DNA of 46,763 bases from contig JAKSYS010000507.1 in the NCBI GenBank assembly GCA_022925895.1, forward strand, positions 1 to 46,763. The letters run 5' to 3'. Numbering within the stretch: the stretch's first letter is position 1; every line of letters starts with the position of its first letter. This document shows positions 13,286-31,404 of the stretch, piece by piece. A model generated the notes under the pieces. The model saw nothing but the letters and a program-made list of their open reading frames with translations, searched no databases and had not been told where the DNA came from. Both the position numbers and the translations under genes were made by a program. The DNA is from Fragilaria crotonensis (taxonomy: Eukaryota > Bacillariophyta > Fragilariophyceae > Fragilariales > Fragilariaceae).

Positions 13286-14499
13286 AAAATGAATTTATCG
13301 AGAGACATCCGGGTGTATGTGTGTGCATGTGGAGATCATTATGTGTCTCGTCCACAATATAATTGGACGTCGACTTCTGACACCAACACGCCCTCTTCAT
13401 CTTTGACCTCGCGGTCAATCACCGCGAGGTTAGAGAATTGATTAAGCCAAGCTTGATGCCATCAAATCATTGCTCAAGGTTGTCCGTTGTGCCTTCTGTT
13501 CAAATCGCGAGTGAACTTGCTGATTTAAAGGTTTGGAGCTATGATAGTACCGCATCGCCTTAATAAGGCGCGTTTTTCGGACTAAAACCAATCACGAGTG
13601 ATATTACAGGATATAGATTTGTACGACACCATCTTTATCCAACGTGATTCGAAATGCGTTGACGGTGTGTATAGTGTGTGGTACATGATCGCGATTTTTA
13701 ATCCCACCTCGATTTTACCCAAGAAGTTTTGATGAGAGTCACGAAGTCACAACATTTTGTTCCATCAACGTTGTGAAAAAAACTAGCAATAGTATTGTAC
13801 TCGAGTCTAGCTATAGCTAAGGAAGAAGATCACTTTGCTGATACTCGAAGTGGTTACGTACCTTACATGAAATTCGAGAACAAAGCTGTCTCGTGTTTAA
13901 CCGTGCCATTTTGAATGAAGTCACAAAGTCACAGCCCAGTGTGAAACAACTTCGCGCTATTTCAGCTCTCAATTGTACTACAAGTCCTTGGACCCGGGTG
14001 CAAAAATATAAAGGAACACGCACTCCTGTACATGAAGTGTGCAGTGCGCACCCAACTATGCAACGTAAAACGGAAGGGTCCTTAGTAGACTCAACTAAAG
14101 TAACTTGCTGTGCACATAACAAAAAATCGGTCGAGCTCGGTCAGATATCATATAAGTGCACCTCCATACAACATCCGGAAAACACACAGCATTTATGCCT
14201 AGCTTAGCGTTCACACTTGAAGTTGGAACAACTAAAAGGGTACCTCCAGTACATTTCATTCTGAGCGCGAGTGGGAAAGCTAAGGAAGTCTGTCTTACGA
14301 TACAAAACTAGTAGCATACATCAGGAACAAATTTTGCTTGAGAACGGACAGTTCATCGAAGCGTGGCCTTAAAAGCATTTGAATAAAGGACAGGAAAGCC
14401 TAATACCACTCGTGAATCTAATGGAGACGACGAAATGAGGGCATCAATCATTCTGGATCTGCAAAACAAATACAGATTACACAAATCACAAAAATCAAA
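13286..14499. other. Intergenic region downstream of metX
   Basis: No gene is supported. A 9-bp perfect inverted repeat, CCTCGCGGT and ACCGCGAGG with a 5-base loop, lies at 13407-13429, about 120 bp after the metX stop; it could be a 3'-end hairpin but nothing shows a function. An open frame at 13893-14207 has no recognisable features. Confidence 0.4.
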
Positions 14500-16366
14500 A
14501 TGAACCGAATAGCTGCCTTCCTACTCATCATACTAATTATCGGATCACCAGTTGCTGCAACTCGCAATCTACAAGATGCGAACCAACCCGATCAAACTCA
14601 AGAGCGTATTGGAAGTTTGAGCGCACTCACCACAATTCCAACACAAGCGAACATTGCAGCACCCTTAACCGACAAAAACATACAAATCACCGACGACACT
14701 GTTGGAGAATGCGTTGGAGCCAGATGTCCCACGTCCCCTACAAGTTCCTCAACCCACCCATCACCATCTCCATTGTCATCTGAGCCAACCAAAGTTCCGA
14801 CATCCGCACCAACGAACACGCCAACAGCTCCTCCGACGCCAGCTCCGACTTGTGATCCGCCGACCTCGCAACCAACAATCACACCAACGAAAACACCGAC
14901 GGCTGATCCCACCTTGTCACCAACTGCGCCTCCCACTCCAAGACCCACTTGCAAACTTACGGTGCCACCGACCGAAACCCCCACCAGAACACCAACCAAT
15001 TTGCCAACTCAGTCTCCAACGCAGATACCGACGCATCCGCCGTCTCAACCCGACCAAGGTGCCAACATATTCACCAACCACCTCGCCAACAATACAAACA
15101 ACCTCAGGTTCTGCAATACAACCGACGACTCTACCGACGAGAGTGCCTACGGTTCTGATTTCGAACCCACCCACCGCGCTATCGACTAAGTCACCCACGA
15201 CAGCTCCACCAACCCCTCGGCCATCTGGTCAACCCTCTGTGGCTCCCACATCACCTCCAACTCCAAGGCCAACAAGCCAACCAACTGCCCCTCCTACATA
15301 TATTCCAACAAGACTACCAACAGGCCCACCAACGAAGGTTCCAACTTTGTCCCCCACTGTAACGCCGACGACTCTACCGACGAGAATGCCTACGGTTCTG
15401 ATTTCGAACCCACCCACGGCGCTACCGACTAAGTCACCCACGACAGCTTTTCCAACCCCAAGGCCATCCGGTCAACCCACTGTGGCTCCCACATCTCCTC
15501 CAACCCCAGGGCCAACTAGCCAACAAACTGCGCCTCCTACATATATTCCAACAAGACTACCAACTCGTCCACCAACGAAGGTTCCAACTTTGCCCCCCAC
15601 CGTAACGCCGACGACTCTACCGACAAGAGTGCCTACGGTTCTGGTTTCGAACCCACCCACGGCGCTACCGACTAAGTCACCCACGACAGCTTCTCCAACC
15701 CCAAGGCCATCCGGTCAACCCACTGTGGCTCCCACATCTCCGCCAACACTATTGACGCCTCCTCCAACCCCAAGGCCAACTAGCCAACAACCTGCGCCTC
15801 CTACTTATCTCCCAACAAGACTGCCAACTCGCCCACCAACGAAGGTTCCAACTTTGCCCCCCACCGTAACGCCGACGACTCTACCGACAAGAGTGCCTAC
15901 AGTTCGTCTTTCTAGGCAACCCACGGTTCGTCCAAGCCCAAGACCTTCTGGTCAACCGACTGCGTTTTCCACCTTATCCCCAACAGTACAACCAACTGTG
16001 TCAGGATCTTCGCTTCCAATACCCAAAGCTCCACCGAGCCCTCAATCGCCTTTGCCTACTTCAATCGCACCTGCGCCACCGACGATTCTTCCAACGCCTT
16101 TTCCCACGAATCGCAAAGATTCATCAACGCCTCCTCCGATCCCGACACGCTCACCAACACGAAAGCCTGCTGGCCCACCAACGATCAAACCAGTTTGTAC
16201 TTACTTCCCTGGCTCCCAAAAACCTACTCGCCGTCCAACAGTTGCACCAATTTCCGTTCCATCGAAATGGCCATCCTTTTATCGTGACAAAGTTCCATCC
16301 AAGCCGCCATCTTCAAAATCAATGAAATTCCCTTCAATTTATGGCAAGGGAAAGCCTCACCACTAA
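14500..16366 (+). pseudogene. Secreted PT-rich repeat protein gene with one frameshift
   Basis: The gene opens with a signal peptide (MNRIAAFLLIILIIGSPVAA) and then turns into a long threonine- and proline-rich domain of PTxxPT-type spacing. The first frame ends at a TAA at 15187-15189, while the same PT repeat continues without interruption in the +1 frame from about 15040 to the stop at 16366. A single-base indel near 15035-15050 would join them into about 620 residues; no GT-AG intron of suitable length and phase fits. Between about 15060 and 15900 the DNA contains roughly three tandem copies of a 243-bp (81-residue) unit. The basic C-terminus ends YGKGKPHH. Diatoms have many such PT-rich extracellular proteins, thought to be cell-wall or adhesive glycoproteins; the role here is inference. 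The break may be real or a sequencing error. Confidence 0.7.
15060..15900. repeat. Tandem 243-bp coding repeat, about three copies
   Basis: Landmarks such as CCTACGGTTCTGATTTCGAA recur at spacings of 243 bp (about 15148, 15391 and, with one change, 15634). Each unit encodes 81 residues including the segments NPPTALPTKSPTTA, PRPSGQPTVAPTSPPTP and PPTKVPTLPPTVTPTTLPT. The third unit carries a small in-frame insertion and its end drifts. Because the length is a multiple of three, copy number can change without breaking the frame. Confidence 0.85.
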
Positions 16367-17075
16367 CATCTCGCCTTGACGAATGTTATGTATTGGAATT
16401 CATTTAATCTTGCACGTCATTTTTACACACAGATACAGAGCATACTCCGACCGTAACTACCGTAAAATAGCATAGACTCTGTGAACCAGTTTTCATCATA
16501 GCACGCTTTGTGGATCAAGTCCAGGACCATGTTGGACAGGGATAGGACAGGCCTCAACTCATTCTAGTATTGGGACTCAAATCTTCGGCGCACTTATAAT
16601 GAATATTGTTGATTGTTATGAGTACCAGGCGGACGCGCATCTGGTCAGACGTGGGCAATCTACTGGTTGTCTATGCCACCTGTTGCATCGACGCCAGTTG
16701 GGAGATATTCGAGGCCCCTCGTGTCAGGCAAGGAGGGCGCATCGTTCTTGTGCTTTGTGCGATGTCATGAGTGGTTGACATTGGCGAAGGTTGTTGAAAG
16801 AGTCATTTGGGGGATTTCATTTTTGTGCATGGGGACCGTCACGCGTCGGAGAAACTGGGACCGCCTCTTGTTTTAGGGTTGCATGAAAATCATTAGGTTA
16901 AATCTTGAAGTGCCAAGAGAAGTGAGAAGCATAGAAATAGGGATGTACGAATACTCACGATCACTCATAATTACCATTCACCGCACGGTCAAAGGACGGT
17001 ATCCATCTCAACGTTTGAGTGAGTACACTCGGATGCACCTACCAGGTAACAACAAGCCCCGCCCTGTGCACCCAA
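16367..17075. other. Intergenic region, nothing recognised
   Basis: Only short frames occur (for example 16667-16876 on the plus strand), none with a recognisable domain. It separates the PT-rich gene from the decayed glycosyltransferase gene that ends at 17076 on the minus strand. Confidence 0.4.
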
Positions 17076-17971
17076 TCATATACGAGAGATCGATTGACAA
17101 GCAACACCTGGAATGTAGAATTCTCCTTCCTGCAGGTCAATCATGTACGTGCAGCCACAACATCGAGAATCCATCACGTTCGTTCGGAGCTCATTCAGCA
17201 GACGAGACCAATTGGAGATGGTCGTCAGCACAAAGAAATTAGCTTTCATGGCTCCCAACAAAGACCCCAATGCCCAAAGTCCAGGCTTTCCACTCAGATC
17301 CTCCGTAATGTAGGAATGAGCACCGTAGATTTGTGTCCGGTTCATTCGACAGGGAAGATACTCCGTGTAAAGGTGGTCCATATAAATATTCCACGACGGG
17401 TGTGCCGCAAGTCGAAATTCTTCCTCGGCGATGGGATCTTCGGTACAAAACAAATTGTAAACTTCGTCAAGCTTTCCTTTACAATTGTCTCGATAGCAAC
17501 GACGAAATCCAAAACGACGGTAGTAGCACCCTCTGCTATCTTGTCGTCCCATCGTATGTGCATGGCAATAAGATTTGGCGGGTCTCCTGTATCACCATAG
17601 ACTGGTTGAAGCTGTCGTTCAGCTTCGTGAATGCAACAACTGAGACACGGACGAAAACAGGAATTCCGTGGCACCTCCATGAAATTCAGTAACCATTGCT
17701 GGATTCCGCATTCTCACGAGGAACTACTTGTATGATACCACTCCACACTTCAATTTGAGACGTGGGAAAATCCCAATCCATTTTCAGGTGGTAGTATTCC
17801 CAGATATACGTGATGATATATAATATATACTGTAATTTTCTTCTCCTACAGTATAAAATCTCTGGAGGTTCCGGAATATCGTCTTAACTGTCTAATAACG
17901 GAATATTGAACATGAGATCAATCTTCCATTGGCAGTCATTCCGAATTCCATCGCAAAAGAAACCACTCCGA
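17076..17971 (-). pseudogene. Decayed glycosyltransferase gene (fucosyltransferase-like)
   Basis: Read on the minus strand, coding sequence runs from about 17971 to a stop at 17076 but changes frame. An N-terminal piece (FCDGIRNDCQWKIDLMFN) contains an in-frame stop, followed by YIWEYYHLKMDWDFPTSQIE. The frame then shifts near 17715 to QQWLLNFMEVPRNS, PPNLIAMHIRWDDKIAEGA, and shifts again near 17500 to LDEVYNLFCTEDPIAEEEF and NFFVLTTISNWSRLLNELR. The pairing of a MHxRxxDK motif with a later SNWSRLxxEL motif resembles the donor-binding region of GT23-like fucosyltransferases (FUT8/NodZ type). That assignment is by motif memory, not alignment. At least three lesions suggest a pseudogene; residual sequencing indels could explain the two shifts but not the stop. 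Plus-strand frames here are shadows. Confidence 0.45.
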
Positions 17972-18228
17972 GTACGAGTACTGTAATACCGTACAGTACT
18001 CGAGTACTCCTCCGCTTAGGAAATCTCAAAAACACTTTCGTTAGACGATATCACTTCGTACTTAATGATACCAAAAGGTAGATTGCTACTATATAACATT
18101 TAACGTGTCTCTGACATTTCGCGTGGAAGCATGCTCAGATATCTTATTATAGTTTCTGGATTGGTCACGATCCGAACATAGACTTCAAAAATCTTCACGG
18201 ATTGCTTCATGGAAAACATATAGATACT

Positions 18229-18632
18229 CCTTTGCGTACCCCAAGGTCAAGAGGGATGACAGTTAAATAGTAACGGACTCGGCTTGGTAACTATCAGGAA
18301 ATCTTTCTCTTCTTCCGCCGTTTACTGTTACTGACTCGAATGTTACCGTTGACAGATGCTGTTCATCCATTTTGAATTCACGAATGAATTCATCACAATC
18401 GACAAGGAAGAACATTCGAGTTTACCTGTTGGGCACAGACCGCTTTCAACAGGTTGACTACTGGTCACCACCAGATACTCGAACACTCAAGAGCCATGTT
18501 CGGATTTGGGTTTACTCCCAAACCGGTTACTCAGCGAGGTTCGTTTGGACTGATTACTTCAGTCACTCTTCGAAGAATCATCGATTGTCATCCTCGGACC
18601 GTACATCCAGGGCCTGACGTCGTTTATTGTTC
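18229..18632 (+). repeat. Split direct repeat A1
   Basis: This 404-bp segment is repeated almost identically at 24307-24710 (A2) and 25272-25669 (A3). It begins CCTTTGCGTACCCCAAGG and ends TTTATTGTTC, where A1 runs into coding sequence and A2/A3 run into a short C- and T-rich spacer. It contains an open frame from the ATG at 18384 to a TGA at 18615-18617, in the same frame as the downstream RT frame. Confidence 0.85.
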
Positions 18633-18695
18633 ACTTTTGCGTTTGTGGAAGCCAAGTTGGCAACAGTCTCGTCTGATGCGGTGATCCGGTCCGAC

Positions 18696-21600
18696 ATGAT
18701 CGGAACAGTAAGCGTATGGTTTGTGAGCGGGTCTCGTTCGTTTCTCGACTTGTTTGAGGGTCCGAAAGGCACTCCCTTGGTGCTGTGGATGGAGAAGAGC
18801 GGGCGTCGAAAGCCGAAAAATTCCCCATCGAGAGAGTGGTTTGGCGTATCTCATGAAACAGTGGGAGGATTGACCACCGCGAGAGGAGTCTTTGGCCGCG
18901 AGGGACTGGATGATCTAGACGTCCCAATTGATCCGTTACGTCGCGGAATTTCTCACATACTGAAATACTCGATTCGACCGAGGCCGTGCTCCCTCCCGTA
19001 TGCTGGCGATCATTACCTGGTCAACGAACGACTGTCAGTGCGTCATTTGGACAAACCCGTGGTGTACGAGACAAGGTTCTCTAGATCCGGCTGGGGAGTG
19101 CGGAGTATAAATGACGTCGAACTGGCACAGGCTTTTGATTTGCCTCCGTATCTGGAGTGGAACCCAAGGTTTCAGGCGAATCTCGTGCCGATACAGATGT
19201 TTCGCGTGGTGATTGACTCGGTTTTGTCGGAAATTGGTCCAGCCGAACAACCAGTAGGTGGACGGTTGAAGATGACGACCCATACGAACGTCGACACCGA
19301 GAGGAGCTCTACGGCGATTCTGCGCGACCAGGTCTGGCTGACGACACTCCAACGCTGGATGCCGGGTTCGTGGACAAACGTAGTAATCGCCGATAGAGCG
19401 GCCAAGGACGATGACGCCGCTGTAGATCATTATCCGTGGAATCAACGCATTTCGCTGGTGTTGACGGCGGCTACCCAGGAGTCCATTATCGGATTCGAGT
19501 TATTAGGCCTTCGGCGATGGCGGTGCCAACTGCGAAGATCGTTTCTCAGCTACTTGACTCGGATCTATGGCGACGGATGGGCTCTCGTATACGCACGATT
19601 CTCGCGCGAACGGAGGAAGCGGGAGGCGGTTGTGATACCACCCATCGGTGCTCCAGCGAAGCGTCAGCGTACGTCTGGGAGGAGTAGGGTGATTTTACAT
19701 CACGATGAGGGGGGTAAAGGCGTGATCAGCTCAGAATTAGGACGCCAACTGGTGATTGACGTCAAGTGTGGATTTCGCATCCTGGCCCAGGTCATGCAGA
19801 GTTCGTGGTGGGATTGGTCTTTCGGGTCCAGCCTGTTTTTCTGGCGGTGGAACGGAAGGGAGCAGGTTCATGCGGCGAGGGACGGAATACCAGTGTTCGT
19901 GTCGTCGGCTTTGCCGAAGAAGCGACGACAGCAGGGACCGCGGATGACTGCGGATCAGCAGGTTCTGGTAGCGGAAAAACTGGACGGCATGGTACGACGA
20001 GCTTACCTGGAGGAAGGTTACGTGTCCAACACAGTGCATTTCTTTGCTGTGCCGAAAGGCGACTCAGATATCCGAGTGGTGTTCGACGGAACGTCAAGCG
20101 GCCTGAATGAGACTCTTTGGGCTCCAAATTTTTATCTCCCATCGGCAAAGTCAGCTGCGATGTCGATGGGTTTTTCCACGTGGATGGCTGACATGGATTT
20201 TGGAGAAATGTTCCACAACTTTCAAATGGACCCAAGGATTTGGCCGTTCTCGGGGGTCGAATTGGGCACGTTGGCCGCAAGAATGGCGACTGTGGAGTCG
20301 GGGCGATCTCGACCCACACTGCTGCGGTGGACTCGACTGTTCATGGGGATGCGTCCCAGCCCATACAACGCTGTAAGACATTACTACTGGGGTGAGGAGT
20401 TCGCTCGGGGAAATCCCTCTAGAACCGGCAATCCAATGGGATACGACCGTGTCAGGTTGAATCTCCCGGGGATGAACGAATATGACCCCTCACTTCCGAA
20501 AGTCATAAAGTGGAGAGACGAAGGACCAAACGGGCTCAAGGGTCAGGTGGCAGGCGATGTTGTCACATTCGTCGATGACGTCCGGGTCACAGGATATTCC
20601 AAGGAAAACTGTTGGGATGTCTACCGCCAGTTTGCGAGTCGGGTCCAGTTCTTAGGGATGCAAAACGCCCCTCGTAAGTTTCGACCCCCGTCACAGACGG
20701 ATGCAGGAGCGTGGACGGGTACCATTTTTAAGGTTGGAAGTGACTTCATCACAAAATCGGTCGCTCAGGAAAAATGGGACAAGGGAAAGGGCTTGGTGAC
20801 AGCCGCGCGGGCCAAGATTCAAGCTGCGGAGAATGGCCGACCTTGGCTTGATCGTCGTGCGCTGGAAAAGGAAGTCGGCTTCCTCAATCACCTGTCCATG
20901 ACATTTGAAACAATGATTCCCTTCTTGAAGGGTTTCTATTTGACTTTGAACTCGTGGCGCGATGGCCGCGATGACCAGGACTGGAAGGTCTCTCCAAAAC
21001 GCTGGAGATCCATTCTCTTCGAGCGAGTGGCCAACGGGCTGTTGTCGGAATCCGAGCTAGACTTGGCATTGGATTCTAGCACCCCCGCCGATGCGCCCGT
21101 GAGGGTGAAGGCGAGCCCAGGTCTCAAGGAGGACGTGGAAGCACTACATTTCATGTTCGAACCGGCAGCAGTCCCGGAAGTTAGCATTCGATCCAATTCC
21201 ATCTGGACAATCGTGTACGGGTTCGGCGACGCCTCGGGATCCGGGTTGGGAGCAACGTTCACCTGCGGAGGCGGGTTCAACTTTCGGATCGGGGTTTGGG
21301 GTTCTGCGGAGGACCCCGAGTCGTCAAACTGGAAGGAATTCACAAACATAGTTGAGTCCTTAGAGGACGAAGCTCACGCCGGGAATTTGTCCAACGCCGA
21401 GGTATACATGTTCACCGATAACTCGACGGTGGAGTCTTGCGCCTCGCGAGGATCTTCCTCCTCAAAGAAGCTGCTGAACTTGATCATTCGGCTACACGGT
21501 CTCATGACTCGCAGCGGGATCAAGATTCACATTTTTCATGTAGCGGGCACGAGAATGATAGCTCAAGGGACCGATGGTGTGTCAAGAGGATATCTGGGCC

Positions 21601-22244
21601 AGGGAGTGATGGCGGGGGAGTCTATGGTAGCCCACATCCCGGTCCACCTTTCGGCGGTTGAACGTTCTCCACTGAATCTTGTGCCCTGGATTCGGAGCTG
21701 GAGTGGGGATGACGCCTGCCTTCTCGACGAAGGAGGGTGGTTCGAAGCAGGGCACGACATCGAGGGTTGGCGGATGGACGACGACGGTTTTGAGAGACCA
21801 TTACTGACAGGCGTTCGGCGAACGTTCATTTGGTCCCCACCTCCGTTGGCAGCAGAAGTGGCCATCGCCGAACTAAGAAAGGCTCGAATCAAGCGGCAGA
21901 GTTCATGTCATGTTTTTGTGTGTCCGAGGCTGTGCACCACTCAATGGGCGAAACAGCTTTATCGAGCCGCCGACTTCGTGTTTGAGGTTCCCGTAGGATT
22001 CTCGTGCTGGCCGACCACAATGCATGAACCTTTGCTAATCGGTGTTCTCTTCCCTTTCCTCAGCGTCCGACCTTGGCAAATCAAAGGGACAGCCAAGATG
22101 TTCGCAGTGGGAAGGGAGTTGCGTGGCCTGCTCAAAGACAACGAGGTGGAGTCGGGGCGTGTTCTGCGCAAACTTTGGAAACTCAGTGTCGACGCCCAAT
22201 CCATGCCAGAGCACATGGTGCGGCAGTTGTTATGCTTCGGATGA
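18696..22244 (+). CDS. Retroelement polyprotein: reverse transcriptase and RNase H
   Basis: The open frame extends from just after the TGA at 18617 to the stop at 22244; the first ATG is at 18696, giving about 1180 residues. Numbered from 18627, the RT domain spans about 450-700, with VHFFAVPKGDSDIRVVFDG as early RT motifs, MDFGEMFHNFQM for the first catalytic aspartate, LFMGMRPSPYNA, and the FVDD box at 648-651 in place of YxDD. RNase H follows with D868 (YGFGDASGSG), a glutamate in the WKEFTNIVESLEDE segment, D931 (MFTDNS) and D983 (GTDGVSR). The first 400 or so residues are unassigned and could include a Gag-like part. The last 200 nt overlap the recombinase frame in a different register. 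The reading frame is intact, suggesting a fairly young copy. Confidence 0.85.
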   Translation: MIGTVSVWFVSGSRSFLDLFEGPKGTPLVLWMEKSGRRKPKNSPSREWFGVSHETVGGLTTARGVFGREGLDDLDVPIDPLRRGISHILKYSIRPRPCSLPYAGDHYLVNERLSVRHLDKPVVYETRFSRSGWGVRSINDVELAQAFDLPPYLEWNPRFQANLVPIQMFRVVIDSVLSEIGPAEQPVGGRLKMTTHTNVDTERSSTAILRDQVWLTTLQRWMPGSWTNVVIADRAAKDDDAAVDHYPWNQRISLVLTAATQESIIGFELLGLRRWRCQLRRSFLSYLTRIYGDGWALVYARFSRERRKREAVVIPPIGAPAKRQRTSGRSRVILHHDEGGKGVISSELGRQLVIDVKCGFRILAQVMQSSWWDWSFGSSLFFWRWNGREQVHAARDGIPVFVSSALPKKRRQQGPRMTADQQVLVAEKLDGMVRRAYLEEGYVSNTVHFFAVPKGDSDIRVVFDGTSSGLNETLWAPNFYLPSAKSAAMSMGFSTWMADMDFGEMFHNFQMDPRIWPFSGVELGTLAARMATVESGRSRPTLLRWTRLFMGMRPSPYNAVRHYYWGEEFARGNPSRTGNPMGYDRVRLNLPGMNEYDPSLPKVIKWRDEGPNGLKGQVAGDVVTFVDDVRVTGYSKENCWDVYRQFASRVQFLGMQNAPRKFRPPSQTDAGAWTGTIFKVGSDFITKSVAQEKWDKGKGLVTAARAKIQAAENGRPWLDRRALEKEVGFLNHLSMTFETMIPFLKGFYLTLNSWRDGRDDQDWKVSPKRWRSILFERVANGLLSESELDLALDSSTPADAPVRVKASPGLKEDVEALHFMFEPAAVPEVSIRSNSIWTIVYGFGDASGSGLGATFTCGGGFNFRIGVWGSAEDPESSNWKEFTNIVESLEDEAHAGNLSNAEVYMFTDNSTVESCASRGSSSSKKLLNLIIRLHGLMTRSGIKIHIFHVAGTRMIAQGTDGVSRGYLGQGVMAGESMVAHIPVHLSAVERSPLNLVPWIRSWSGDDACLLDEGGWFEAGHDIEGWRMDDDGFERPLLTGVRRTFIWSPPPLAAEVAIAELRKARIKRQSSCHVFVCPRLCTTQWAKQLYRAADFVFEVPVGFSCWPTTMHEPLLIGVLFPFLSVRPWQIKGTAKMFAVGRELRGLLKDNEVESGRVLRKLWKLSVDAQSMPEHMVRQLLCFG

Positions 22245-23613
22245 CTCCATAGACTTCTTCATTGCGACGGGAGACTTGCCACGGGTGGCGGAGGACGATG
22301 AGGACAGGTTGCTGTCTGGTTGGATCCCAAGACGAACGGACGTCGGAAGGTTTACGACGGCTAGGGACGGAGACGATCTGATGGTGTCTTTCGAGTGCGA
22401 CTTTTGCGTCTTCGGAAAGCTTTTTCATCGCGCCCCTGAGGAAGGAGAAGAGAAGGATTTGTTTGCGTTAAGGTGCATTCGGAGGATCAACCTCGACGCG
22501 TTCTGGAGTAGGGCAAGGTCCACGGTGGAGGCAAACTCGGCCAAGGTCCGGGAGGGACTGAAGATCTCCAACAGATTGGGTCTTACCGGGCCTTATCTGA
22601 GTCCCGGACCCCTTCCTCGCCATGATCATTGCGGTTATGAGGTCGCGCTTCAGATTGTGGTTTCGTCTCTCGAACCGGGGCGTTACTCCAACAGTCATAA
22701 ACAATGGGACACAGTCCGCCGGTTTCGGTCTTGTTTCTCAAACCAAGTAAGATCGGCACGTGATGCAAACTTCACTCCCCTTGTCTTGGCAGACAGCAAG
22801 GGATCAGGTTTTCAGCGGTTAGCTGTTGACCCTTGCGGTTCGTTATGGTTCCAGCGTTTCATGTTAGGGTGCAGCAAGAGAATGGGGCAGGATTGGAGGC
22901 CAAACCAGGCCATTGGGATCCGGATCATGCACCTCTTGCTCGAGCGTGTCGAGGAAAGAGCCCGGCTGGCTGATGAAGTCGAGGATCGTCATAAATGGGT
23001 AATGGCCGGGGCATATTTCTGCGTCTGTTTTGTGCTTTCGTTGCGGAGCCCAGAAGGTCTCATGGCCGACCTTGAGGGACTTCTCCATCATTATGACCCC
23101 GAGTCAAACGAAGTAATCGTTCCTCTTCTGGGAAGGTTCAAGGGAGAACATCATGCAAAGCAACATCTCCTCATCTCGTGTGCGACAACGGGCTCGGGTA
23201 TCCGTGTTAAGATATGGATAGCTCGAGCTATCGCGGTTCATAAGGCTTGCGGGCGATCTGTGGGACCAGTGTTTGTGAATTCAAAGGGATATCAATCCAC
23301 GACGTCCGACATGAACGACTTGTTCCTCGATGTGTTGGTGGAGATCCACGAGGAGGATCCAAGATTGTTTGGACCCGACATCGAGGGCGCCGGCGATATA
23401 CCAGATAAGTTCAACGTGTTTAGGTCTTTCCGACGGGGTTCGGAATCAAGAGCTGTGGCTATGAGGGTGGCCGAGGCAGACCGCTACGTGGTGAATCGCT
23501 GGAAAAGAAAGGAGTCGGCTGGAACAGGGAGGGTAGCTCATGCCATAGACCAACACTACGTTGATGTGAACATGGTGAAGGAGTCCTTCCTGAGATACAC
23601 GAGTGCGATGTGA
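22042..23613 (+). CDS. Retroelement tyrosine recombinase
   Basis: This frame is +1 relative to the RT frame and overlaps its last 203 nt, so the true start is unclear: the portion before about 22245 may be overlap only, and the first clear in-frame ATG after the overlap is at 22381. A frameshift or a spliced or re-initiated product is possible. The C-terminal third has the tyrosine recombinase pattern: Arg335 in LSLRSPEGL, the box II segment FRSFRRGSESRA (Arg464/Arg465) and a terminal Tyr506 in IDQHYVDVN. The family box II is usually HSxRRG; here the histidine place reads Arg461. In DIRS-order elements this enzyme recombines the circular cDNA into the genome. It is followed after about 200 bp by repeat B1. 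RT plus recombinase plus split repeats makes the assignment firm. Confidence 0.8.
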   Translation: MFSSLSSASDLGKSKGQPRCSQWEGSCVACSKTTRWSRGVFCANFGNSVSTPNPCQSTWCGSCYASDDSIDFFIATGDLPRVAEDDEDRLLSGWIPRRTDVGRFTTARDGDDLMVSFECDFCVFGKLFHRAPEEGEEKDLFALRCIRRINLDAFWSRARSTVEANSAKVREGLKISNRLGLTGPYLSPGPLPRHDHCGYEVALQIVVSSLEPGRYSNSHKQWDTVRRFRSCFSNQVRSARDANFTPLVLADSKGSGFQRLAVDPCGSLWFQRFMLGCSKRMGQDWRPNQAIGIRIMHLLLERVEERARLADEVEDRHKWVMAGAYFCVCFVLSLRSPEGLMADLEGLLHHYDPESNEVIVPLLGRFKGEHHAKQHLLISCATTGSGIRVKIWIARAIAVHKACGRSVGPVFVNSKGYQSTTSDMNDLFLDVLVEIHEEDPRLFGPDIEGAGDIPDKFNVFRSFRRGSESRAVAMRVAEADRYVVNRWKRKESAGTGRVAHAIDQHYVDVNMVKESFLRYTSAM

Positions 23614-23810
23614 TACGAACGACAAGAGAGATGATGAATGAATCAAGCGCCGATGCTCGTTTCGTTCATTGCTTGCCGGAAGAATCGGGTAACCTCCTTC
23701 ACATTCTGGAGAAAGAACAATTGAAGGAATGTTTCGGGATGTCGATCACTGAGCATGTATCAAAGGCAATTCCTCGCAGCAATGCGAGGTCAGGGTGGAT
23801 CTCTGTGGTG

Positions 23811-24308
23811 GGGGGTTAGACTTCAAGAAGAAGGACAGAACGAAGGCTCGTTAAGTCCCGCTTCTGAATCGTGTCAATCTTTTCGAGATCGATCCAGGGA
23901 ATTCCGAGATGAAGGAATTGCACCTCGAACAGGCATATCTTCTCTGTCGCTTCCGTCTCGTTGCTCGATGACTTTGCTCCGACAAAGGAACGGAATCGCC
24001 AGACTAAAGAAGAACAGCCCTTTCAAGATCTGAATGACCCGAGTCGCGAAGCCATGCAAAGATGCATGACCTGAGGAGGTTTGGTACCGTACACTGGCAG
24101 TTGTGTACTGTTCCCCCATTACGCGGGCATCTTCACACTACCTATGTGGTGATGCTTGTGAGACATCCTATGACACTCGAGGTGTTTTCGTTGTCAGGCC
24201 CAGTCTGAACATGAGAATTGCCGAGAGCAGTTTAGTTTCAATTAAATTCCGGAAGACTAGAAAGTTAACTGTGTTTCGAAAACGTGTCCTGCATTTTAAC
24301 GGTAATCC
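23811..24308 (+). repeat. Split direct repeat B1
   Basis: About 498 bp, beginning GGGGGTTAGACTTCAAGAAG and ending TTTTAACGGTAATCC. It recurs at 24776-25273 (B2) and 25733-26227 (B3). Open frames on its minus strand appear three times only because the DNA is repeated; they have no recognisable features. Confidence 0.85.
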
Positions 24309-25273
24309 TTTGCGTACCCCAAGGTCAAGAGGGATGACAGTTAAATAGTAACGGACTCGGCTTGGTAACTATCAGGAAATCTTTCTCTTCTTCCGCCGTT
24401 TACTGTTACTGACTCGAATGTTACCGTTGACAGATGCTGTTCATCCATTTTGAATTCACGAATGAATTCATCACAATCGACAAGGAAGAACATTCGAGTT
24501 TACCTGTTGGGCACAGACCGCTTTCAACAGGTTGACTACTGGTCACCACCAGATACTCGAACACTCAAGAGCCATGTTCGGATTTGGGTTTACTCCCAAA
24601 CCGGTTACTCAGCGAGGTTCGTTTGGACTGATTACTTCAGTCACTCTTCGAAGAATCATCGATTGTCATCCTCGGACCGTACATCCAGGGCCTGACGTCG
24701 TTTATTGTTCCAAGCAGTTTCTTTTTCCCCACCCACCATCCCTTTTCTTTCCCGGGTCGTTATTTCTCACTTCCCGGGGGGTTAGACTTCAAGAAGAAGG
24801 ACAGAACGAAGGCTCGTTAAGTCCCGCTTCTGAATCGTGTCAATCTTTTCGAGATCGATCCAGGGAATTCCGAGATGAAGGAATTGCACCTCGAACAGGC
24901 ATATCTTCTCTGTCGCTTCCGTCTCGTTGCTCGATGACTTTGCTCCGACAAAGGAACGGAATCGCCAGACTAAAGAAGAACAGCCCTTTCAAGATCTGAA
25001 TGACCCGAGTCGCGAAGCCATGCAAAGATGCATGACCTGAGGAGGTTTGGTACCGTACACTGGCAGTTGTGTACTGTTCCCCCATTACGCGGGCATCTTC
25101 ACACTACCTATGTGGTGATGCTTGTGAGACATCCTATGACACTCGAGGTGTTTTCGTTGTCAGGCCCAGTCTGAACATGAGAATTGCCGAGAGCAGTTTA
25201 GTTTCAATTAAATTCGGAAGACTAGAAAGTTAACTGTGTTTCGAAAACGTGTCCTGCATTTTAACGGTAATCC
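24307..25273 (+). repeat. A2-spacer-B2 unit
   Basis: A2 (24307-24710) is joined to B2 (24776-25273) by a 65-bp spacer rich in C and T (CCCCACCCACCATCCCTTTT) that is absent between A1 and the coding region and before B1. Together with B1 upstream, this completes the B1-A2-B2 end of a split-repeat element. Confidence 0.85.
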
Positions 25274-26227
25274 TTTGCGTACCCAAGGTCAAGAGGATGA
25301 CAGTTAAATAGTAACGGACTTCGGCTTGTAACTATCAGGAATCTTTCTTCTTCCGCCGTTTACTGTTACTGACTCGAATGTTACCGTTGACAGATGCTGT
25401 TCATCCATTTTGAATTCACGAATGAATTCATCACAATCGACAAGGAAGAACATTCGAGTTTACCTGTTGGGCACAGACCGCTTTCAACAGGTTGACTACT
25501 GGTCACCACCAGATACTCGAACACTCAAGAGCCATGTTCGGATTTGGGTTTACTCCCAAACCGGTTACTCAGCGAGGTTCGTTTGGACTGATTACTTCAG
25601 TCACTCTTCGAAGAATCATCGATTGTCATCCTCGACCGTACATCCAGGGCCTGACGTCGTTTATTGTTCCAAGCAGTTTCTTTTTCCCACCCACCATCCC
25701 TTTTCTTTCCGGGTCGTTATTTCTCACTTCCCGGGGTTAGACTTCAAGAAGAAGGACAGAACGAAGGCTCGTTAAGTCCCGCTTCTGAATCGTGTCAATC
25801 TTTCGAGATCGATCCAGGGAATTCCGAGATGAAGGAATTGCACCTCGAACAGCATATCTTCTCTGTCGCTTCCGTCTCGTTGCTCGATGACTTTGCTCCG
25901 ACAAAGGAACGGAATCGCCAGACTAAAGAAGAACAGCCCTTTCAAGATCTGAATGACCCGAGTCGCGAAGCCATGCAAAGATGCATGACCTGAGGAGGTT
26001 TGGTACCGTACACTGGCAGTTGTGTACTGTTCCCCCATTACGCGGGCATCTTCACACTACCTATGTGGTGATGCTTGTGAGACATCCTATGACACTCGAG
26101 GTGTTTTCGTTGTCAGGCCCAGTCTGAACATGAGAATTGCCGAGAGCAGTTTAGTTTCAATTAAATTCCGGAAGACTAGAAAGTTAACTGTGTTTCGAAA
26201 ACGTGTCCTGCATTTTAACGGTAATCC
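25272..26227 (+). repeat. Extra A3-spacer-B3 unit
   Basis: This is a second tandem copy of the A-spacer-B unit, not expected in a canonical element. It differs from the previous unit almost only by one-base losses or gains in short homopolymers (for example ACCCC to ACCC, GAGGGA to GAGGA, GGTAAC to GTAAC, AACAGG to AACAG). The right boundary, TAATCC then GAAATTTTC, marks the end of the whole element. Confidence 0.8.
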
Positions 26228-26276
26228 GAAATTTTCAATGGAATCTTTGATATCGATTCTGATTTTTTCCTTGGAC

Positions 26277-26536
26277 CTTCTTAAATCTTCTTAAGTAATT
26301 TCCGACCTTCTTAAACTTTCTTAAGATATTTTCGATCTTCTTAATTCTTCTTAAACTTTCTTAAGATATTTTCCATCTTCTTAATTCTTCTTAAACTTTC
26401 TTAAGATATTTTTGATCTTCTTAATTCTTCTTAAACTTTCTTAAGACATTTTCAGTCTTCTTAATTCTTCTTAAACTTTCTTAAGACATTTTCAGTCTTC
26501 TTAATTCTACTTAAACGTTCTCAAGACATTTTCAGT
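26277..26536. repeat. Minisatellite, 40-bp unit of CTTCTTAA words
   Basis: Two 30-bp and five 40-bp units run head to tail. The 40-bp unit consists of four 10-bp phrases, CTTCTTAATT, CTTCTTAAAC, TTTCTTAAGA and a variable TATTTTCGAT. Units near the right end carry more changes. It begins about 50 bp after the retrotransposon ends. Confidence 0.9.
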
Positions 26537-29500
26537 CTTGATATCTCCCATGGCATTTGTCAATCTCCTGAAATCTTCAGTGACACAACCGGTTCGCAGT
26601 TTGCAAGGTAGAAAAGGCTGGAACGAACCGTACGTACGCCCTTTCTGTGACTGACTGCACAGTACCAGCAATCTTCATCCTCATCGCGTATGGAACAGTA
26701 CAAGAGTGTTCACAATTCATACAGGAGCACGGCGTTACGCCAGTGCTTTGTAGGCAAAGCACGACATTTATTACCTACACGAAGCGCAAGTACAGCAGTG
26801 CGTGTTTTTATGTACTGTACAGAGTGGGTTGGAGAATATGGTCCTACTTACACGTGTACTGCAGCACGTAGTGCTTGCACTTTTTCTCATTCTCACTTTT
26901 GATACCACTTAAAATACCACCCCGTGCGTAGAGTGTGGTGAATTTTAAAACTACGCGTGTGCGCAAGTACTATGAAACTGCTAGTTAGTACTCCCCTCTA
27001 CTACTAGTAGTAGCTATGATACTAGAGTCGTAGCCGCAATTACTCCTATTAGAATAGTTCTTTATTTACCCCTCCTTTTAACTCGATGCCCTTCCTCAGC
27101 TTTTTGCAGGATTATGAATTATTTGTTTATTTACATTACATTCTAAGTCATAATCAATCAAAGGTGAGAGCCAGTTAAGCATTTCACTTAAGATAACAAG
27201 AATTTCCCTGCACATTCCACACAATACATTTAATTGTTAAGACACTACCCTATTATGCTTTCCTGGTAGACCTCACACCACTATGGTCTTCATTTTTCAC
27301 ATACCTGAGAAATCTAACACCAATCTGGTGTTTATGTTTCATACATGTTTTCAAAGCTCAATCATGTTTGAGGCAACCTCCTGCCTACCAAGAACCAGCC
27401 AGTGTTCAAACAAAAGAGGATTCCAGAATCATCATACTTACCAGCAGATATTCTCTTGAAAATGACTGTTTTGATGAGGGTTTCCTTTATGGTAATTTCA
27501 CCTGCAGCCCTCCACCCATCTCCTGCTGATTTGTTCTGTGTGAAAATATCACCTGATCCTATTAAGTTCTGTCGATTGTGTGCCTGCTCCTTCTCAATTA
27601 GGTGTGTGGATACTTTCAGATTTTTAGATTTTTTTAATGTGTTTCTCTGAGACTAATGCAAATGTCAGTGAGCCATTCCTGTGGTGCATTGATTTGGAGC
27701 CATGCTACAGCAATTCACCATAACAACATGCAAATCATGTTGGCTCAGGTACATTGCTGGTCCCACCAGTACCTAAAAAACATGTTATTGTGTGCCTCCT
27801 GCTCTCTGTTGAATTGCAGCACCAGCGGATATACGCTTATGAAATATTTGGTTGTATTGTCATCAGTGCCTCTGAGTTCCATCAATAGCCTCACCACTTT
27901 CACACAACCTTTGTGAATCCAGCATCTTGAGCCTAATAATCATGATTTCCACACATAACCCCTTAAAACAATCCTTGATGCTGTGTGTTGCTTGCTGGCA
28001 TACAGATACTGGTCCGACTACCTAAAAACTATTTTGTACTTGTATGTTCTCTCTGTTAAGGAGCAGGGGATATGTGCTCCTAAAACATATGGTTGCAGTA
28101 TAAGTGTCTCTGAGTTGCCTTTGTTAATCCAGCCACCATATGGGTGTATGAAATTCATGCCTTCCACATGTTTTACCAAAAGAGTAGTCCTTCTTGTTTG
28201 TGACAAGTCCAGACATAATCATAGTTGATTTTTAATGCAAAAGGCCATGCAGGTTTGAAGTTGGAAGTACCTGGTAGTTAGTTTTGAAGTGTAGTAGACA
28301 TGATAGCTGACAGTGAGATCAGGAAAATTCTCTGGAGTACTGAATACTACTTGCAAGCGGTATTGGAGTATTGTGGAGTGGGCACTGAAGTACTCACTAC
28401 TACTAGAGCACCTGGTAAAGGAGAACTCATGAAGAAGAGGGATCATCCTTGTGGAAGTGGTAGAGTGGTGGTGTTTTGATATAAGGTAGTAAATGACGGG
28501 AAAATACCACCACTTTTGGTACCACCAAGTGGTATAGAATATCTAAAAAAACCACATCAAATTGATGATAGTCACTAACTTTACAACCTTCCTTATAGCT
28601 AGTCCTTAGTTAATCGATACCACTACGGTGTTATTTCGTGAATAATTCTTTTATTTAGTAATGAATCTCATCGTATTAAACTTCTTGTCATTGAATGGAA
28701 CTTCAGTACTGAAGTACTTATTTAGCAGCAGGCACTCCAATACAAAGGCTTCACAAAACCACTTGTCACCCAAGAAGAAGTTCCAGGTTTAACAACCAGG
28801 TGATATAATTGAAAAAGCACTTGAAAAACCAGTGAAAATGCCAGTTGGATTGACTACCGGCAGCCAGTATGAAACATCAGTGTGGTTGTCAAGTACTGAA
28901 AACCCCTTAAATAGTTTCGTGTTTGTTCGTTTCACTACTCTGAAACTACTAGGGGAAGGGACTAGAAGATTGACAAAGAAATATGATGCCAAGGATACAA
29001 AATACTTTAATAGATCCAGCATTGCCTTGTTGCTCTTTTGGGCTTAATTGCAACAGTTCAAGTTCCTTGTTCACCATGTTTCCAGAAAAATGATGGTTGA
29101 AAAGGTAAAGATAGTTGAACACAAGCTGTAAACTGAGTGAAATGAGCAATCTTAAACTGCAGTTGCAGTTTGCTATGATGTATCTGATCATCACATAGTA
29201 GTACCGGTTCAGCGGCAGCTCAACGTACTTGAAATAATTGTGTGAGCTTGCAAGCGCCGATAACCAAAAAGCACCCCTCAGTTGAATGAAGCATTCATTT
29301 TCAGACACAAATTTGGTTCATTATGAGCAACATAATCTCCAGGGTCTCTTGCATCCAATGTGAACTCCAAACTGCAAATCAGACATGAGCCATTCACTTG
29401 CTTGTCATGCAAGTGGTGAAGTCATGGGACAGCATATTTGTCAATTTTGGTGTTGTTGTTAAATGTGAACTGTTTGACAAGATATAAGAATTGTACATAT

Positions 29501-30498
29501 AAATAACCTATATCTTGAACTTTCATTGGCAGAACTGTGTTCGAGTACAGCAGCAGCTGTAGTAGTACATAGCCTCCATTGTTTCCTGGTTTTCATGTTG
29601 CTATCTTTTAAACACATTAAAAAATTCATGATGCCTAGCATTCTTCAGCAATAGGCAATTGCAAAAATACTCAATCAGTGCTCCAAATACGGTCCCCAGT
29701 AAATGCAAAAGGGTGTTCCTTGTAAGGTACTATTAATAAGACTTGATTTCTCTTCCAACTGAAGTTTGTGCAGCAGCAATATAACCTTAGTATCCTTCAC
29801 ATCCCAAATCCTTCTAGGTACCATGGCTATGGTACCTTAGAGACCCTGCTGCCATGGTTTCCAGTCTTGGTCTTCTTTCCCATTGTAGTCCATCCAAGGT
29901 CACTTTTAGCCATGCCACTACTAACCTGCCGTGTATTGGACACCATGCTACTGTGGTACAGTCACTGGAACTCCGAATACCGTGTTGCCTTCTGCAGTAG
30001 TCACAGTCTACCGGGGTACAAGTACAAGGTAGTACCAGGTACTTGTACTGCAACAGCCGACAAACCTACAGTACTGCAGCACTACTCGTAGTACTGGAGT
30101 ACTACTTGTACATAACAAGTGCTTGGACTACTGTATGCATATTCATAGTCCAGCACCCAGCACACCCGCTCCGTATGCTCCGTAGGAGGTATGCATAGAT
30201 ATATGCATAAATGCGTGCTGTTGAAGTGTTGAGTGTGGAGTGCGATAGAACCTAATCCTTACTGATCCTATCGTGATTAAATCGATAATCCACTGACTCT
30301 TGAATGGTGTATGAAAAATGTTTTGTCAATTCTAGGTGAAATGTCACCAACTACTAAGCTACGACCGGTATTTAGGTAGTAGAATGCCCTTTTCTTCCAT
30401 GGAAGAAAACGAGCCTGGTACACCTGTACACATAATTCTACGCACAGAACTCTTTCTGATCGGACATCCCTAAAACTACTTATGACATGCTTATCAGT
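26537..30498. other. Four-kilobase region without recognisable genes
   Basis: No protein domain or RNA gene could be recognised on either strand; frames are short and AT-rich. Within it, about 27690-27920 and 27935-28180 look like diverged direct copies (shared order of words such as TACCTAAAAA, TGTTCTCTCTGTT or GCTCTCTGTT, GGATAT and GTGCCTCTGAGTT or GTGTCTCTGAGTT). GTAC-rich words cluster at 30000-30110. The region is bounded on both sides by related 40-bp minisatellites. Confidence 0.45.
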
Positions 30499-30737
30499 CT
30501 TCTTAATTCTTCTTAATATATATAGGGTCTTCTTAATTCTTCTGAATTCTTCTTAATAAATTTCGGGTCTTCTTAATTCTTCTTAAATCTTCTTAATTAA
30601 TTTTGGGTCTTCTTAATTCTTCTTAAATCTTCTTAATTAATTTTGGGTCTTCTTAATTCTTCTTAAATCTTCTTAATTAAATTCCGGTCTTCTTAATTCT
30701 TCTTAATAAATTCTGGGTCTTCTTAATTCTTCTTAAT
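30499..30737. repeat. Second 40-bp minisatellite of TCTTCTTAA words
   Basis: The better preserved units read, in 10-bp phrases, GGGTCTTCTT, AATTCTTCTT, AAATCTTCTT, AATTAATTTT. Flanking units are shortened. Period, orientation and the TTCTTAA core match the array at 26277-26536, but the fourth phrase differs, so the two arrays are relatives rather than simple copies. Confidence 0.9.
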
Positions 30738-31404
30738 CATCTTTGAAAAACTTAAAGAAACTGAATGTCAAGATTCCTATCGCTGACGCATATTCACGAT
30801 TCATTTATATCATTTCGATAGTTTCCCCGTAAGTAGGATTTGTTCTAAGTAGGAATGTTACTTTAATGAAGAACACGAAGAACGATCAAATAAATTCTGT
30901 CGGATCAACAGGCGGGCATCTAATCAAAACAGTTGACCGAAATTCGTACGAATCAGAATATGTCCATTCCACGGTCCACAGAATCAACACCTATGTGGCT
31001 TACTGTCCTGAGGTCTCTACTACGGTAGCTAGTATAGGGTTTTCGTGTCAAAAGACCTTTGATTTCCGTAAGTCCGTGGTCCGATGGTTTACAATCGCAC
31101 CGTTACTGCTGAACGGAACTGCAAAAAAGCAGTTAAGACGATATTCCGGAACCTCCTGGTTAAAAAGTATGATCTCACAATTTTTTGACTCTCGCACGAG
31201 GTAGGTCTACGTGTTGGCAAAAAGGCAGTGTAATAAGGGGCGTTTACGGCGGATGGACTGGAAATATTAGTAGTCCCGCATCAAGTACTACCGGTATGGT
31301 ACCTGGTACTGGTAGAACGAGGGACGCCCTGGTAGTCAACTACGCATGCCAGTACAAGTACCAGGTACTAGTACATACAACGAGTTCATTTCATTGGATA
31401 TACT
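30738..31404. other. Intergenic region, nothing certain
   Basis: A frame of 112 codons (30866-31204, plus) has no recognisable domain. GTAC-rich words occur at about 31280-31380. The 8-bp duplication GATATACT at 31397-31404 marks the left edge of the MITE that follows. Confidence 0.35.

What the first reader, a model, noticed from the sequence alone, without database searches (positions are those of the whole stretch)
18229..26227. Split-repeat tyrosine-recombinase retrotransposon with an extra A-B unit
The order A1-ORFs-B1-A2-B2-A3-B3 adds one complete A-spacer-B unit to the Ngaro/PAT layout. Known elements have A1-ORFs-B1-A2-B2. The extra unit could come from recombinase-mediated insertion of a second circle, from unequal exchange, or from an assembly duplication. 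The CC at every junction is a candidate crossover core.
Basis: partly seen in the sequence, partly recalled or inferred. Interest (0 to 1): 0.75.

Follow-up and report, generated by a model that had tools for sequence, protein, structure and literature searches.

The report
Truncated diatom retrotransposon, probable assembly duplicate
A crippled copy of a known kind of jumping gene sits inside another jumping gene of a diatom, and the extra repeat unit at its end, which made it look unusual, carries the marks of an error in genome assembly.

Summary
The order A1-ORFs-B1-A2-B2-A3-B3 is really in the assembled sequence. The element has 27 related recombinase loci in this diatom genome. I read 20 of their 3' ends; all 14 readable past a second B have one A-spacer-B unit, while this copy has two. 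The extra unit differs by 15 gap openings and no substitution in 1466 columns, resolving to 13 events, all in 25215-25852: sequence of raw-Nanopore look. The genome matches the published Fragilaria crotonensis assembly in size (Nanopore, Canu, Pilon). I favour an assembly mis-registration (0.6) over a biological extra unit (0.33). Only reads can settle it.

Family-wide, C at -1 is invariant (14 of 14) and CC only preferred (9 of 14).

New: this copy has lost ORF1 and the start of the RT ORF (about 2.8 kb), it is nested in a TIR repeat, and solo A-spacer-B units exist. ORF1 loss and solo units have precedents in Cafeteria Ngaro elements (PMC8547959).

The parts
18229..18632 (+). A1, 5' split repeat, begins with CC; breaks off about 17 bp short of the A/spacer divergence point of C67 and C204
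18627..22244 (+). reverse transcriptase / RNase H ORF lacking its N-terminal part; joined to the end of A1 by an internal deletion that removed ORF1
   Evidence: (RVT_1 below cut-off in 4 of 4 relatives)
22042..23613 (+). tyrosine-recombinase-like ORF (invariant R335, K367, RSxRRG at 461-466, W487, Y506)
   Evidence: no curated family match
23810..24308 (+). B1 repeat, starts with a G-run, ends AATCC
24307..24710 (+). A2 repeat, identical to A1
24711..24775 (+). pyrimidine-rich spacer of unit 2
24776..25273 (+). B2 repeat
25272..25669 (+). A3 repeat (the surplus unit), seven short indel events against A2
25670..25732 (+). spacer of unit 3
25733..26227 (+). B3 repeat, ends AATCC
25215..25852 (.). 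block holding all 13 differences between the repeat units; short gaps only, no substitution: probable unpolished or mis-registered assembly stretch
17864..31156 (.). host repeat in which the element is nested; 27-bp perfect inverted ends 17864-17890 and 31130-31156

Best explanation
The element is an internally deleted copy of a Ngaro-like (split direct repeat) tyrosine-recombinase retrotransposon family of a diatom. A circular DNA copy made by reverse transcription was joined into the genome by the recombinase, by exchange at a CC shared by the B/A junction of the circle and the target, so no staggered target duplication was made. The target was a copy of a repeat with inverted ends. (Shown: one CC in the empty site, two in the filled one. 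Inferred: the circle and the enzyme.) The copy lost ORF1 and the N-terminus of the RT ORF, so it is probably defective on its own. The third A-spacer-B unit is most likely not biological. A one-period mis-registration in the repeats during Nanopore assembly would insert one extra unit and leave a stretch that few reads cover and that polishing misses.
For: Empty sites: 7 of 8 fetched host-repeat copies read ACT-CC at the site, 5 of them followed by GAAG. A second empty site, in a tandem duplicate beside the C383 element, reads GGTAAACC-TATC. Relatives: 14 of 14 3' ends readable past a second B have one unit (20 of 27 related loci fetched). Signature: 15 gap openings and 0 mismatches in 1466 columns, 13 events in a 638-bp block. 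Under uniform placement that clustering has a scan bound of about 7e-4, worked out after the fact (one search gave 1.5e-4 with 15 openings, which counts one site twice). The density (13 events in 638 bp, about 2%) is like that at the extreme end of contig C643 (12 gap openings and 1 mismatch in 505 columns). Source: 62.11 Mb in 881 contigs against 61.85 Mb in 879 contigs for F. crotonensis, assembled from Nanopore R9.4.1 reads with Canu and polished by Pilon with 350-bp-insert Illumina reads. The error-free last 375 bp of B3 are within about the reach of pairs anchored in the unique right flank. Deletion: in 9 of 9 relatives compared (of 12 5' ends fetched) the matching start of RT lies 2774-2848 bp further from A1.
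Against: Short-read polishing could also skip a real third copy, because reads would go to the cleaner copies; the signature shows poor support, not absence. Indel-only differences occur between B1 and B2 of ordinary elements too (C58 5, C33 3, C478 2, C353 2, C383 1 gap openings with 0 mismatches). Nanopore reads with N50 17.8 kb should span the whole array. The species is inferred from assembly size and diatom genes, not proved. No read was examined. One of eight empty copies (C370) lacks the CC, and the C109 right end keeps only one C.
Confidence: 0.6

Rival explanations
1. The extra unit is real and arose after insertion by unequal homologous exchange or replication slippage between the identical A/B repeats.
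For: A1=A2 exactly and all copies are free of substitutions, so exchange would be easy and would leave no trace. Solo A-spacer-B units, which A1 x A2 recombination would give, exist at C10/C98/C360 and C596, so such recombination may well happen in this genome.
Against: 0 of 14 readable relatives show a gained unit. The differences sit in the surplus unit and the last 60 bp of B2.
Confidence: 0.2
2. The extra unit is real and was put in by the recombinase: the circle A-ORFs-B-A-spacer-B holds two identical B/A junctions, can resolve into a large circle and a 0.96-kb A-spacer-B circle, and the small circle joined an existing B/A junction.
For: The unit boundaries coincide exactly with the B/A core. 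Solo units flanked by the same kind of junction exist.
Against: Solo units are equally explained by recombination of the 5' and 3' repeats, as proposed for Cafeteria (PMC8547959, passages read). There is no array in 14 of 14 readable relatives, and no second pair of A starts under 1.5 kb apart among 46 motif hits with at most one mismatch, although that scan missed the indel-bearing A3 itself.
Confidence: 0.13
3. It is an LTR or other integrase-type element, not a recombinase element.
For: No curated profile recognises the recombinase ORF; the RT matches only below the cut-off.
Against: The repeats are split (A at 5', B-A-B at 3'), not two equal LTRs. Empty sites show no staggered duplication. 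The ORF keeps an R...K...RxxR...W...Y pattern.
Confidence: 0.02

Closest known systems
Ngaro retrotransposons of Cafeteria burkhardae (PMC8547959; passages read)
   Same: A1-[ORFs]-B1A2B2 layout; in relatives the same order of a first ORF, RT/RNase H and YR; isolated AB repeats; variants with about 2 kb deletions covering ORF1; nesting in other mobile DNA
   Different: Here a spacer separates A2 from B2 (not checked for Cafeteria); the recombinase motif is RxxR instead of HxxR and PF00589 is not matched; in the assembly one more unit is present
PAT-group elements of the DIRS order (PMC4157794; passages read)
   Same: split direct repeats A1-B1-A2-B2
   Different: DIRS-group elements including PAT are defined there by a methyltransferase domain; none was detected here, with weak sensitivity
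VIPER/TATE of kinetoplastids (PMC6681497; passages read)
   Same: A1 at 5', B1-A2-B2 at 3'; the authors saw more complex repeat patterns in some copies and suspected wrong assembly or chimeric natural sequences
   Different: host lineage; no sequence comparison made here
DIRS1-like elements (PMC3266345; passages read)
   Same: integration model of recombination at a 3-bp motif shared with the genome, without target duplication; start and end triplets of some listed elements differ by one base
   Different: DIRS1-like elements have inverted terminal repeats and internal complementary regions; here the repeats are direct

Membership tests
Ngaro-like YR retrotransposon | split direct repeats A1-ORFs-B1-A2-B2 with the internal repeats downstream of YR | tested here: met
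   window; family (15 of 20 3' ends show a repeated B, 5 do not; A1 matched to A2 in 12 of 12)
Ngaro-like YR retrotransposon | reverse transcriptase and RNase H | tested here: inconclusive
   leaning met: PF00078 below its cut-off but at the same place in 4 of 4 relatives (E 0.0024-0.03), not in the window protein itself; FVDD-like and GDASG/TDN motifs conserved in 5 of 5 (meaning recalled); no PDB match
Ngaro-like YR retrotransposon | tyrosine recombinase domain (PF00589, HxxR and Tyr) | tested here: inconclusive
   no PF00589 match in 8 of 8; first residue of the box is Arg, not His; R, K, RxxR, W and Y invariant in 8 of 8; hhalign with PF00589-like genes of the same genome aligns only the RxxR-W stretch, E 0.12 and probability 0.5%; single-sequence fold uninformative, pLDDT 36
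Ngaro-like YR retrotransposon | Gag-like ORF1 | tested here: not met
   absent from this copy. 10 of 12 relatives' 5' ends have an open frame of 753-970 codons there; that it is Gag-like is inferred from position only
Ngaro-like YR retrotransposon | no staggered target duplication; short shared core | tested here: met
   by inference
Ngaro-like YR retrotransposon | no methyltransferase domain (separates it from PAT/DIRS) | tested here: inconclusive
   no Pfam match, but Pfam barely sees the RT either
Ngaro-like YR retrotransposon | RT/YR phylogeny inside Ngaro | not testable with these tools
   I had no reference DIRS/Ngaro proteins at hand
LTR retrotransposon | two LTRs and a 4-6 bp target duplication | tested here: not met

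The most novel reading that the evidence does not exclude
The third unit is real. Because the circle of a split-repeat element carries two identical B/A junctions, the recombinase can release and insert a small A-spacer-B circle, so these elements can grow 3' arrays and seed solo units. The window would then hold a captured product of that side reaction in an ORF1-less copy.
Probability: 0.13. Interest if true: 0.5.

Novelty: new member of a known kind. Interest (0 to 1): 0.25.

Why it matters
If the extra unit is an artefact, the lesson is practical: unusual repeat orders in split-repeat elements of Nanopore drafts need read support. The positive result is a diatom family of Ngaro-like elements with long open-frame, deleted and solo forms. 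Paralogous empty sites there show directly how the element joins its target, at C with a preference for CC. That gives a concrete recombination site to test for this enzyme class.

Tried and rejected
Allelic copy of this insertion: the left flank (window 14000-17860) has no near-identical second contig, only partial matches of 70-81% identity, so no second haplotype of the filled site could be compared.

A second copy of the same subfamily: outside C456 the best DNA matches to A are 75-85% identical, so the extra unit could not be checked in a sister copy. The closest recombinase by identity, C533 (90% over 320 aa), ends at the contig end (41,025 bases) and showed no B repeat in the 4 kb read.

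Structure route: a single-sequence fold of window 22282-23610 gave mean pLDDT 36, so no fold search was run. PDB sequence searches with one sequence and two profiles gave nothing. A plasmid search gave nothing.

Idea that the error block proves an artefact: rejected as too strong, because a real third copy can escape short-read polishing in the same way.

Idea of a strict CC core: weakened. 5 of 14 left ends have T, A, G, G or T at -2, and the presumed downstream duplicate of the C64 target reads TC where the filled right end reads CC (its left flank lies off the contig). The C109 right end reads AATC-A. Some of these could be run-length errors (CC read as C). One of eight empty copies (C370, L022) lacks the CC altogether.

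Motif scan of A starts: with up to 2 mismatches the reversed-pattern control gave more hits (67+61) than the pattern (43+46), so only the 46 hits with 0-1 mismatch were used; the control is not split by mismatch number.

Full report
The observation. Self-comparison of the window finds three B copies (23810-24308, 24776-25273, 25733-26227) and three A copies (18229-18632, 24307-24710, 25272-25669). The order is A1-ORFs-B1-A2-spacer-B2-A3-spacer-B3. A1 and A2 are identical over 404 bp. B1-A2-B2 against B2-A3-B3 shows 15 gap openings and no mismatch in 1466 columns. By my count they are 13 events (one site is counted twice and one or two are split), all in 25215-25852: run-length changes, plus one lost TC and one doubled T. 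So the described layout is in the assembly.

Host. The genome searched as G000 has 62,107,879 bases in 881 contigs and 19 matches to the silicon-transporter family, including one open frame with three domains. Of the 14 control genomes one rang, below the cut-off. It is therefore a diatom. Size and contig number match Fragilaria crotonensis SAG 28.96: 61.85 Mb, 879 contigs, Nanopore R9.4.1 reads, Canu, then Pilon with 350-bp-insert Illumina reads (PMC9476933, first of two parts of the text read). The species is an inference.

The family. The recombinase ORF gave 61 match rows. From these I read 28 loci with long matches, the window among them, and about nine fragments. I fetched 20 of the 27 related 3' ends. 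Fifteen show a repeated B. In 14 the sequence beyond the second B is readable (C643 stops at its contig end), and all 14 have one A-spacer-B unit; in C760 the second B is only partly matched. Five show no B repeat (C223, C30, C533, C255, C218). The 14 are not all independent: C33 and C478 share 2.19 kb of right flank at 99% identity but not their left flanks. A motif scan of A starts found 46 hits with at most one mismatch. Twelve pairs lie 8.74-8.97 kb apart, the window pair 6.08 kb and the C643 pair 5.47 kb, and no pair lies under 1.5 kb. The scan missed the indel-bearing A3, and its control is high at two mismatches, so it is weaker evidence.

What this copy lacks. In 10 of 12 relatives' 5' ends a long open frame (753-970 codons, stop to stop) follows A1, and then the RT ORF; in C760 and C33 that frame is broken. 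In the window A1 runs straight into RT. In 9 of 9 relatives compared (C33, C478 and C760 were left out) the matching RT start lies 2774-2848 bp further from A1, and the C67 ORF1 has no meaningful match in the window (best E 0.35). A1 breaks 17 bp before the point where A1 and A2 diverge in C67 and C204. The copy is therefore an ORF1-less deletion form. Cafeteria Ngaro elements have such forms (about 2 kb deletions covering ORF1) and isolated AB repeats (PMC8547959, passages read). Solo A-spacer-B units occur here too: one locus seen in three contigs (C10, C98, C360; truncated in C360) and a second at C596.

Insertion site. The element lies in a dispersed repeat with 27-bp inverted ends (17864-17890, 31130-31156). 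I fetched eight other copies of that repeat that lack it. Seven read ACT-CC at the site (five then GAAG, one GACG, one AAAG), while the filled site has CC at both ends; the eighth (C370) lacks the CC. A tandem duplicate beside the C383 element is a second empty site with a single CC. The shared bases are TCC in the first case and CCT in the second, so the common core is CC. Over 14 left ends (12, plus C643 and the window) the base at -1 is always C, and -2 is C in 9 (chance about 0.0012). At C64 a presumed duplicate of the target reads TC where the filled end reads CC. At C109 the right end keeps one C. So a single C seems obligatory and CC is preferred. In DIRS1 elements integration at a shared 3-bp motif without target duplication is the published model (PMC3266345, passages read).

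Proteins. The RT ORF is recognised only below the cut-off by PF00078, in 4 of 4 relatives and always at the same place, and not in the window copy. The recombinase ORF matches no curated family. It keeps invariant R, K, RSxRRG, W and Y residues in 8 of 8 aligned members; reading these as catalytic residues is from recall. The usual HxxR begins with Arg here. Profile comparison with PF00589-like genes of the same genome (themselves just under the family cut-off) aligned only that box, at E 0.12 and probability 0.5%. So the recombinase assignment rests on the motif, the repeats and the junctions together, and membership in Ngaro proper is not proved.

Is the third unit real? For an artefact: it is unique among 14 readable relatives; the differences are of one technical kind; they are packed into 638 bp; their density (about 2%) is like that at a contig end (C643); and the clean last 375 bp of B3 are about what 350-bp-insert reads anchored in the unique flank could polish. 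A stitch shifted by one repeat period would produce this (inference). Against: a real third copy could stay unpolished as well, other B pairs differ by indels only, and long reads should have spanned the array. Complex repeat orders in TATE copies raised the same doubt (PMC6681497, passages read). I give 0.6 to artefact, 0.33 to a real unit by either route named, and the rest to other readings.

Novelty. The element is a new member of a known kind. A search for papers with both 'diatom' and 'Ngaro' gave 10 papers (listing only, though passages of PMC4157794 and PMC3212892 were read for other points). None of the listed titles or abstract starts describes such a family in Fragilaria; papers outside that library were not searched.

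Noticed in passing
window 17864-31156: Dispersed repeat with 27-bp perfect inverted ends, about 5.3 kb without the insert; eight other copies fetched, 82-100% identical over the left 0.36 kb; no ORF of 120 aa or more overlaps 26228-31200 of this copy.
   Followed up: partly
window 26267-26579: Tandem array of about 40-bp units (CTTCTTAA-rich) just right of the insertion; similar arrays lie at the matching place of other host-repeat copies.
   Followed up: no
L003 and L019 (C478, C33), L037 and L038: Two copies share 2.19 kb of right flank (99%) but have left flanks without similarity: a misjoin through the element or a real exchange between copies.
   Followed up: no
L034 277-787 and L006 right flank; L014 right flank: Two insertions sit in a local tandem duplication (280-bp period at C383, 157 bp at C64) that keeps an empty copy of the target.
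   Followed up: partly
L022 (C370): One host-repeat copy lacks exactly the CC of the target; run-length error or excision scar not distinguished.
   Followed up: no
L002 and L031 (C204): The two flanks of the C204 element carry inverted copies of one sequence, as if it entered near the centre of a hairpin-like repeat.
   Followed up: no
G000 C97:29749-33762: Three silicon-transporter domains in one open frame of 1456 codons, as reported for Synedra (PMC6114903, passages read).
   Followed up: no
L066, L067 (C549, C547): A second, distant recombinase lineage (32% identity) in the same genome.
   Followed up: no
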